Source of the DNA: Longimicrobiales bacterium
GTDB lineage: Bacteria; Gemmatimonadota; Gemmatimonadetes; Longimicrobiales; Gaopeijiaceae
Direction of reading: 5' to 3'
Assembly: GCA_028823235.1 (NCBI GenBank)
Contig: JAPKBW010000005.1
Coordinates: forward strand, 1 to 64,000
DNA: 64,000 nucleotides
Part shown: positions 16,634 through 18,283 of the stretch, one piece after another
How the letters are laid out: every line of letters begins with the position of its first letter
How positions within the stretch are numbered: position 1 is the stretch's first letter
Made by a program: the position numbers and the translations under genes
Notes under the pieces: generated by a model
The model's input: the letters and a program-made list of their open reading frames with translations, nothing else
Told to the model about the DNA's origin: nothing
Databases searched by the model: none

Positions 16634-17653
16634 CTACTCGAAGCTGTCCGGTACCGCCTCGAACATATCCGCTGCCATCTCATCGGCAGACTTCATCCTG
16701 CTCATGTCCAGCTCGAAGTCGGGGTGTCCCGGCGCTTCAAGCTTCTCAAGGAGCTCGCGAATCTCCCGTGCCGACAAACCCGCTGCCTTCATTTCGTCAG
16801 TTGAGACCGAAGCGCCATCGACTACCGTGATACCGTCATCGGCTCCCTGCACGAGCTTGGAGAGGACTTCCCGCTCCACTCGAGTTACCGGCTCAGCGCC
16901 GAGGTCATAGTCAATCCAGGCTTCGTAAGAAAGCGGCGCGACTCGCTTCACCATTGCTGCAATGACCTGAGCGAACTGCTGGATCTCCCATTGAGCTCTC
17001 GTATCCACACGCAGAGACAGGAAGTGGAGGAGATTGTGCAGATCGATTTTCCAGTACCATTGAGTATACGTCGATACAGGCAGGTCGATACGGGCGATCT
17101 CACGAGCTACGTCTTCTTCGAGCATCCACCGATACGCATCCCCTGAATCTGCGCGAAGCTTCTCCCAGCGCGCCGAGGCTTCACGATACACCTCTTCGGG
17201 CGCCCCACCGTCGCGGCCCTGATTGTTCGACTTGCTCTGCAGCGAGAACTGCTCCTGGTCCGGCATATAGAAGAGAAGCGGCATCAACGAGTAACGAGCG
17301 GACAGCTCGTTGACCGAGGCGGTCCGATGCCGAATCCACTGGCGTGCTACGAACATGGGCATGGCGCAGTGGAACTTGAACTCGACCATTTCCGACGGCG
17401 TCGTGTGTTTGTGCCGTCGGAGATACCGCACAAGTCCCCGAGTCGCCGAAACCTGTCGGGTACCGAATCCGTAACTCACCCGAGCCGCTCGCTCGACGTC
17501 TTCATCGGATCCCATGTAATCCACCAGCGACACGAAGCCGTGGTCGAGAACGGGGAAATATCCGCCGAGAATCTCCTCGGCCGCCGGGCTGGTGGGTCTC
17601 TTCGTTTCCATGACTATTCGTTCGAGGGTCTCTGGCTGATGCAGAATATACAC
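16634..17653 (-). CDS. thyX: FAD-dependent thymidylate synthase
   Basis: A 339-residue ThyX that makes dTMP from dUMP using methylenetetrahydrofolate, FADH2 and NADPH. The diagnostic motif RHRTASVNELSAR occupies residues 108-120. It is longer than the usual 220-260 residues, with an acidic helical tail of about 75 residues (STDEMKAAGLSAREIRELLEKLE) after the core. An alternative start at Met15 (17611) would remove a short N-terminal segment. It lies 19 bases downstream of the selenoprotein gene on the same strand, so the two may be co-transcribed. Confidence 0.93.
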   Translation of the reverse strand: MYILHQPETLERIVMETKRPTSPAAEEILGGYFPVLDHGFVSLVDYMGSDEDVERAARVSYGFGTRQVSATRGLVRYLRRHKHTTPSEMVEFKFHCAMPMFVARQWIRHRTASVNELSARYSLMPLLFYMPDQEQFSLQSKSNNQGRDGGAPEEVYREASARWEKLRADSGDAYRWMLEEDVAREIARIDLPVSTYTQWYWKIDLHNLLHFLSLRVDTRAQWEIQQFAQVIAAMVKRVAPLSYEAWIDYDLGAEPVTRVEREVLSKLVQGADDGITVVDGASVSTDEMKAAGLSAREIRELLEKLEAPGHPDFELDMSRMKSADEMAADMFEAVPDSFE

Positions 17654-17672: not shown

Positions 17673-18260
17673 TCATGCCGGCTCTAGGCCCCATGCTTGG
17701 AGGAAATCCTCCGGCTCGACGCCCAGGCCATCGGCCACTCGGGTGATATAGTTGAAGTAGCCGATGACCTGTGTCGCGTCATGAATCGCGCGGTCATCGA
17801 GCCCGAGTGAGCGGAGTTCGTCGATGTCTGGCTGGCCCGCGTCCTGTTGGTGGTGGGTCAGCTTCTCCGCATAGCGGCACAGTGCTTCTTCCGCCGCGCC
17901 CAGATCAGCAGTTCGCCAATCGCGAGTGACTGCGTGCACGAAAACATCCCGCTCCGAATCAGTCGCAAACAACTCCTCGACCTCTTCCCGGAGGTCATGC
18001 GCATGCGCCTGAGTTCAGTAAAAGCAGTCGTTCGCTTTCGAGGTAACGACCGCGAGCAGCTCTCTCTGCCAGCGCGTGAGCGGCGACGTCCCGAACATGA
18101 TCGCGGCGTAGAACTTCATCGACGCATCCATCGCCGGGGGGTTCTGGCTCATTATGTGGACGATGTGCCAGATTCGACCCGCGCGTTCGAGCGCCTGATC
18201 GAAGAGCTTCTTGAGAAGGCCGGAAGCCTCCCCCACAGGGACCTGTTCGATGTAGGGCAT
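17673..18260 (-). CDS. AhpD-like peroxidase-related selenoprotein (CxxU)
   Basis: One 195-residue protein is encoded if the in-frame TGA at 18015-18017 is read as selenocysteine 82. The halves share one frame. The first ends KANDCFY and the second starts TQAHAHDLREEV, giving C79-F-Y-U82-T-Q-A-H86, the C-x2-C-x3-H centre of AhpD-type carboxymuconolactone decarboxylase folds with Sec in place of the second Cys. The C-terminal half keeps family features (LGLDDRAIHDATQVIGYFNYITRVADGLGV). A SECIS-like hairpin follows the TGA directly. The family reduces hydroperoxides or acts in thiol relay, and AhpD-like selenoproteins are known from marine metagenomes. Without Sec insertion the product is an 81-residue stub. 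Confidence 0.85.
17971..18015 (-). promoter_or_regulatory. Bacterial SECIS-like hairpin
   Basis: Directly after the UGA the mRNA can fold with an outer stem AACTC (18015-18011) / GAGTT (17975-17971) and an inner stem GACCTC / GAGGTC (17996-17991 / 17984-17979) closing the six-base loop CGGGAA. The loop has G at position 2 and begins 24 bases after the UGA. Bacterial SECIS elements usually place a small G-containing apical loop about 16-37 bases after the UGA. SelB binding is inferred. Confidence 0.75.
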
Positions 18261-18283
18261 GGCGGAACGTAGGGCGCGGAAAA

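What the first reader, a model, noticed from the sequence alone, without database searches (positions are those of the whole stretch)
17673..18260. Probable selenoprotein of the AhpD/peroxidase-related family next to thyX
Two halves of one family protein share a frame separated by a single TGA exactly where the AhpD motif C-x2-C-x3-H needs its second cysteine (C79-F-Y-[TGA]-T-Q-A-H86). Every other part of the protein is intact, unlike the nearby decayed genes with several lesions. A SECIS-like hairpin follows. AhpD-like selenoproteins have been described from ocean metagenomes (established), but one in this setting, co-oriented with a flavin-dependent thymidylate synthase, would merit description. 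If confirmed, the organism must carry selA/B/C/D outside the window.
Basis: partly seen in the sequence, partly recalled or inferred. Interest (0 to 1): 0.9.

Follow-up and report, generated by a model that had tools for sequence, protein, structure and literature searches.

The report
AhpD-like selenoprotein in a Gemmatimonadota genome
A bacterial peroxidase-type gene that looks broken by a stop codon is almost certainly intact: the genome has the full machinery for reading that codon as selenocysteine, and every close relative carries the same codon, so this is a well-supported new example of an already catalogued selenoprotein family.

Summary
The second was also passed: all 80 homologous loci from the genome collection have TGA at this codon. 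In a survey of 298 genomes of the phylum, genomes whose homologue has TGA nearly always have selA (91/93). Genomes whose homologue has a real Cys codon there never do (0/8). A 6-bp hairpin 24 nt after the TGA is weak evidence alone (18% of synonymous recodings give it), but 38/38 aligned relatives keep it with compensatory changes. Sequence and fold place the protein in the "peroxidase-related" AhpD-like family (TIGR01926), with all five AhpD proton-relay positions present and Sec at the second Cys. AhpD-like CxxU selenoproteins have been catalogued since 2005. The thyX neighbour is local synteny, not a conserved partner. Verdict: real, ordinary in kind, new member of a known kind. Peroxidase function is inferred.

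The parts
17673..18260 (-). ahpD-like selenoprotein gene, 195 aa, ATG start, one in-frame TGA read as Sec
   Evidence: Translation with TGA=U; TIGR01926 above cut-off; PF02627 above cut-off; AlphaFold2 pLDDT 95.4 and PDB fold matches
18015..18017 (-). TGA codon 82, selenocysteine at the position of the second Cys of CxxC
   Evidence: TGA in all 82 loci examined, i.e. this gene, its own-genome paralogue and 80 loci from the genome collection; TGC/TGT in all 9 homologues taken from selA-less genomes
17979..17996 (-). Bacterial SECIS-type hairpin GACCTC-CGGGAA-GAGGTC: 6 bp stem, 6-nt loop with G at loop position 2
   Evidence: 38/38 aligned relatives pair at all six positions, 12 cells with compensatory changes, 0/500 shuffles as high; other offsets average 0.9-3.5 of 6 pairs against 5.75 here
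18266..18271 (-). Upstream of ahpD: TACGTT (TANNNT) 5 nt before the ATG, a possible -10 box of a leaderless mRNA
   Evidence: TANNNT ends 5-9 nt before ATG in 17 of 41 close relatives, 0-4 of 41 in every other 5-nt bin; the consensus sigma-70 scan found nothing
16634..17653 (-). thyX neighbour, same strand; probably starts at the ATG near 17611, not at GTG 17653. Context only, not part of the system
   Evidence: ORF; adjacent in 8 close relatives, absent near most others; start judged from the aligned relatives

Best explanation
The gene encodes an intact AhpD-like (TIGR01926, peroxidase-related) selenoprotein. The UGA at codon 82 is decoded as selenocysteine by SelB with tRNA-Sec(UCA), directed by the hairpin just downstream of it (decoding inferred from genes, conservation and RNA covariation, not measured). 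The product is an all-helical AhpD-fold protein whose C79-F-Y-U82 pair sits in the AhpD proton-relay site (Glu67, Cys79, Tyr81, Sec82, His86). By analogy with AhpD, the selenolate of Sec82 would reduce a hydroperoxide (or a related electrophile), a Cys79-Sec82 selenenylsulfide would form, and a cellular thiol donor or AhpC-type partner would reset it. The chemistry and partner are inferred; the confidence given is for the selenoprotein reading, and about 0.6 for the peroxidase role.
For: Complete Sec machinery in the same genome: selB, selA, selD with its own in-frame TGA in GUACK, tRNA-Sec (70.9 bits, ARAGORN anticodon tca). TGA at the same codon in 82/82 loci, and one TGA in all 61 phylum matches of 200 bits or more. 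TGA tracks selA in the phylum: 91/93 TGA genomes have selA, 0/8 Cys genomes do; the Cys homologues have TGC/TGT at that codon. Covarying hairpin. Invariant E67, C79, Y81, residue 82 and H86 match the spacing of the PA0269/AhpD proton relay (36, 48, 50, 51, 55) described in PMC3141380. Fold: pLDDT 95.4 and nearest PDB structures all AhpD-like.
Against: No protein-level evidence. The hairpin alone is not exceptional for this peptide. Two TGA-bearing genomes lack a selA hit (G131, G211), though both are fragmented. The TGA/selA association is phylogenetically clustered: the tree needs only two label changes, and 8 of the 9 Cys rows form one distant clade, so the Fisher p-value overstates independence. 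Peroxidase activity has not been shown for this subfamily.
Confidence: 0.96

Rival explanations
1. Nonsense mutation in a decaying gene: the TGA is a true stop and the gene is a pseudogene.
For: An in-frame TGA splits the ORF.
Against: TGA at the identical codon in all 80 relatives from several phyla, with the frame open on both sides and the active-site residues invariant; a full Sec system in the genome.
Confidence: 0.01
2. Sequencing or assembly error turned a Cys codon (TGC/TGT) into TGA.
For: The window lies in a 90-contig assembly.
Against: The same TGA is in dozens of independent assemblies and in other genomes of the same genus.
Confidence: 0.01
3. It is a Sec protein but not a hydroperoxidase: an AhpC-resetting adaptor, or a reductive enzyme acting on another electrophile, as in the AhpD-fold debrominase Bmp8.
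For: The fold search also returns Bmp8 (6ohi, 6ohj; E about 3e-5) at lower identity. No substrate is known to me for the TIGR01926 structures listed. PA0269, with the same Tyr in the relay, has only weak H2O2 activity (PMC3141380).
Against: The closest structures are the AhpD-like peroxidase-related ones (6k40, 2oyo, 3c1l), and all five AhpD relay positions are kept.
Confidence: 0.35
4. ahpD and thyX form a functional operon that links selenium redox chemistry to thymidylate synthesis.
For: Same strand, short gap; adjacency kept in 8 close relatives.
Against: Seen in only 10 of the 80 loci from the genome collection, with 2 of those separated by kilobases, and together with a longer shared block including an aldehyde dehydrogenase gene. 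A TATATT-like motif lies in the gap in all nine sequences, which suggests thyX has its own promoter.
Confidence: 0.05

Closest known systems
AhpD-like selenoprotein, TIGR01926, CxxU (listed in PMC13188914, credited there to the Sargasso Sea survey PMC1088965)
   Same: Same NCBIfam family above cut-off, Sec at the same place of the CxxU motif, SECIS-type hairpin just downstream
   Different: The catalogue example is another protein that I could not retrieve; this one is in Gemmatimonadota and belongs to a clade in which all 95 sampled members have Sec
NF041238 AhpD_rel_CFYUT, alkylhydroperoxidase-related (seleno)protein (Sargasso Sea hypothetical protein 1)
   Same: CFYUT motif and homologous core (75 bits over residues 59-187)
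   Different: Longer family (357 positions); this protein is far below its cut-off of 175 bits, so not a member
Cys-type peroxidase-related proteins with solved structures: D. radiodurans AhpD 6k40, D. geothermalis 2oyo, M. loti 3c1l
   Same: Whole-chain fold, TM 0.83-0.84 on the query, 27-33% identity, same motif
   Different: CxxC instead of CxxU
P. aeruginosa PA0269 and M. tuberculosis AhpD
   Same: Five-residue proton relay with identical spacing; Tyr at the relay position as in PA0269
   Different: Cys, not Sec; M. tuberculosis AhpD has His132 at the Tyr position; different chain topology, weak overall match (1me5 at E 0.067)

Membership tests
TIGR01926 peroxidase-related enzyme | Score above the curated cut-off over the whole protein | tested here: met
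   124.2 bits against 81.8; residues 4-185 to profile 3-177 of 178
AhpD-like family (PMC3141380) | Two-helix motif with the relay residues Glu, Cys, Tyr/His, Cys, His at fixed spacing | tested here: met
   E67, C79, Y81, U82, H86, spacing as 36/48/50/51/55 in PA0269; helices 63-76 and 80-93. The second Cys is Sec
AhpD-like family (PMC3141380) | Hydroperoxide reduction | not testable with these tools
   Needs enzyme assay
Bacterial selenoprotein | In-frame UGA aligned with Cys of homologues | tested here: met
   TGA here; TGC/TGT in L135-L143 from selA-less genomes; CxxC in PDB relatives
Bacterial selenoprotein | Host genome has selA, selB, selD and tRNA-Sec | tested here: met
Bacterial selenoprotein | SECIS hairpin just downstream of the UGA with G at the start of the apical loop | tested here: met
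   Hairpin 24 nt after the TGA, loop CGGGAA with G at loop position 2; covariation in relatives. SelB binding itself not tested
Bacterial selenoprotein | Selenium in the protein | not testable with these tools
   Needs 75Se labelling or mass spectrometry
NF041238 AhpD_rel_CFYUT | Score above the curated cut-off | tested here: not met
   75 bits against 175
ahpD-thyX functional pair | Neighbourhood conserved across the family | tested here: not met
   thyX near the gene in 10 of the 80 collection loci, adjacent in 8, all close relatives

The most novel reading that the evidence does not exclude
This gene belongs to an old clade of AhpD-like proteins that uses selenocysteine in every member sampled, across Gemmatimonadota, Planctomycetota, Verrucomicrobiota, Chloroflexota, Actinomycetota and others, with no Cys version found. 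If that holds, the chemistry may require selenium and the gene may help keep the Sec trait in these lineages, disappearing or being replaced by a distant Cys homologue when selA is lost.
Probability: 0.3. Interest if true: 0.45.

Novelty: new member of a known kind. Interest (0 to 1): 0.25.

Why it matters
Annotation pipelines that treat TGA only as a stop would split or discard this gene and its relatives. The survey indicates that selenocysteine use is common in the phylum (selA match in 226 of 298 genomes), and that this AhpD-like clade is a good marker of it. It extends a known family to a little-studied phylum and does not change ideas of how selenoproteins work.

Tried and rejected
Rfam scans of the window and of the gene region gave no SECIS or other RNA family. 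Consensus promoter and terminator scans found nothing. A codon-usage scan for further in-frame TGA candidates in the window gave this site and two others (44329 minus, 9264 plus); from their sequence I take the latter two for antisense of real genes and did not test them further. Minimum free energy of the hairpin region is no better than that of synonymous recodings, so energy was dropped as evidence. The thyX operon idea was rejected on synteny. The library searches turned up no paper on AhpD selenoproteins in Gemmatimonadota; subscription journals are mostly absent from it.

Full report
OBSERVATION. The feature is real and on the minus strand. Read from ATG 18260 with TGA as a residue, the gene gives 195 residues, MPYIEQVPVGEASGLLKK...ANDCFY-U-TQAHAHDLREE...LQAWGLEPA, ending at the TGA 17675..17673; the internal TGA is codon 82 at 18017..18015. 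Read conventionally it falls into ORFs of 81 and 99 aa in one frame.

FAMILY. The read-through protein scores 124.2 bits against TIGR01926 'peroxidase-related enzyme' (cut-off 81.8) over residues 4-185, and 75 bits against NF041238, a curated (seleno)protein family whose name contains CFYUT (cut-off 175, not met). PF02627 is also above cut-off. PDB relatives by sequence are AhpD-like proteins with C-x-x-C at this place. An AlphaFold2 model from 29 relatives has mean pLDDT 95.4, pTM 0.91, nine helices. Foldseek's best PDB matches are D. radiodurans AhpD 6k40 (E 4.6e-11), 3c1l, 2pfx, 2prr and 2oyo; the debrominase Bmp8 and sestrin follow further down.

ACTIVE SITE. In 29 aligned relatives E67, C79, Y81, residue 82 and H86 are invariant. 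Their spacing equals that of the proton relay Glu36, Cys48, Tyr50, Cys51, His55 of P. aeruginosa PA0269, which corresponds to Glu118, Cys130, His132, Cys133, His137 of M. tuberculosis AhpD (PMC3141380). Sec82 therefore sits at the second catalytic Cys. That this residue attacks the peroxide is inference from AhpD.

SEC MACHINERY. The window's genome (G000, 3,138,754 bases, 97.16% complete) has selB, 324.6 bits; selA, 515.8 bits, full length; selD, 387.1 bits with one internal TGA, which lies in ...GAGUACKLG..., the usual Sec motif of SelD (that it is the usual motif is my own knowledge); and a tRNA-Sec, 70.9 bits, with anticodon tca by ARAGORN. The only other PF02627 hit of the genome is a second AhpD-like gene with CFY-TGA.

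CONSERVATION OF THE CODON. A scan of one genome per species with the protein (Cys written for Sec, so not biased towards TGA) gave 80 loci. All 80, plus this gene and its paralogue, have TGA at the codon, TGY at Cys79 and CAY at His86. In 298 genomes of the phylum, all 61 matches of 200 bits or more contain one TGA. Of genomes with a listed match, 91 of 93 with TGA have selA, and none of 8 with an open frame does. Nine open homologues were read from those 8 genomes and all have TGC or TGT at the codon. The two TGA genomes without selA (G131, G211) are assemblies of about 620 and 830 contigs. On the tree, 8 of the 9 Cys rows form one distant clade and the ninth joins the paralogue group, while the 95 rows of this gene's own clade are all Sec. 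The association is therefore clustered and the Fisher p is not to be taken at face value, but its direction is exactly as expected.

SECIS. After the TGA come 24 nt, then the loop CGGGAA closed by GACCTC/GAGGTC. Across 59 sequences assigned to the 6-nt loop register the mean is 5.75 of 6 pairs at this offset against 0.9-3.5 elsewhere, and 23 others pair 6 of 6 in a 5-nt loop register. In 38 aligned sequences every cell is paired, with 12 compensatory cells at two positions; no shuffle of 500 reaches the paired percentage, the compensatory cell count or the covariation score, while the number of covarying pairs (2) is not unusual. One compensatory change also alters the protein (Val to Ile), visible. 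The Cys homologues show 3-5 of 6 pairs at that place.

CONTEXT. thyX follows on the same strand directly in 8 close relatives and kilobases away in 2 more; it is not found near the other 70 collection loci. Where it is present the block usually includes an aldehyde dehydrogenase gene and further shared genes. The thyX start is more likely the ATG near 17611, and a TATATT-like motif precedes it in all nine sequences compared, so separate transcription is plausible. This is local synteny.

PRIOR KNOWLEDGE. AhpD-like CxxU selenoproteins were reported from the Sargasso Sea in 2005 (27 sequences; PMC1088965) and from the Global Ocean Sampling data in 2008 (AhpD-like 1 and 2; PMC2398784). A 2026 inventory lists 'AhpD-like protein, TIGR01926, CxxU' (PMC13188914). 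This is a new member of that kind. Shown here: gene structure, machinery, codon conservation, covariation, fold. Inferred: Sec insertion in the cell, catalytic role, substrate and reductant.

Noticed in passing
L024 (G000:C8:110766-111299, minus strand): A second AhpD-like gene in the same genome with CFY-TGA-INHH, about 38% identical to this one, making two AhpD-like selenoprotein candidates plus Sec-containing SelD.
   Followed up: partly
window 18266..18271, minus strand, and upstream regions of close relatives: A TANNNT box ends 5-9 nt before the ATG in 17 of 41 close relatives, against 0-4 in other bins, suggesting a leaderless mRNA for this gene.
   Followed up: partly
window 17611..17653: The thyX ORF as listed from GTG 17653 probably begins at the ATG near 17611; a TATATT-like motif lies in the ahpD-thyX gap here and in all eight relatives compared.
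   Followed up: partly
L146 (G136:C5:37769-38539) and G035:C5:62705-63370: In one genome of the same genus and one of the same family the homologue is split into two overlapping pieces, as by a frameshift: assembly error or true decay.
   Followed up: no
L065, L066, L070, L072, L082, L084 and others, 23 loci: Planctomycete and verrucomicrobial relatives keep a 6-bp hairpin at the same place but with a 5-nt loop, a shifted pairing register.
   Followed up: partly
Phylum survey, 298 genomes: selA gives a match in 226 of 298 genomes of the phylum, so selenocysteine use looks common in Gemmatimonadota.
   Followed up: no
L144 (G219:C149): A homologue with two in-frame TGA codons, one at residue 82 and one aligned with residue 22.
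   Followed up: no
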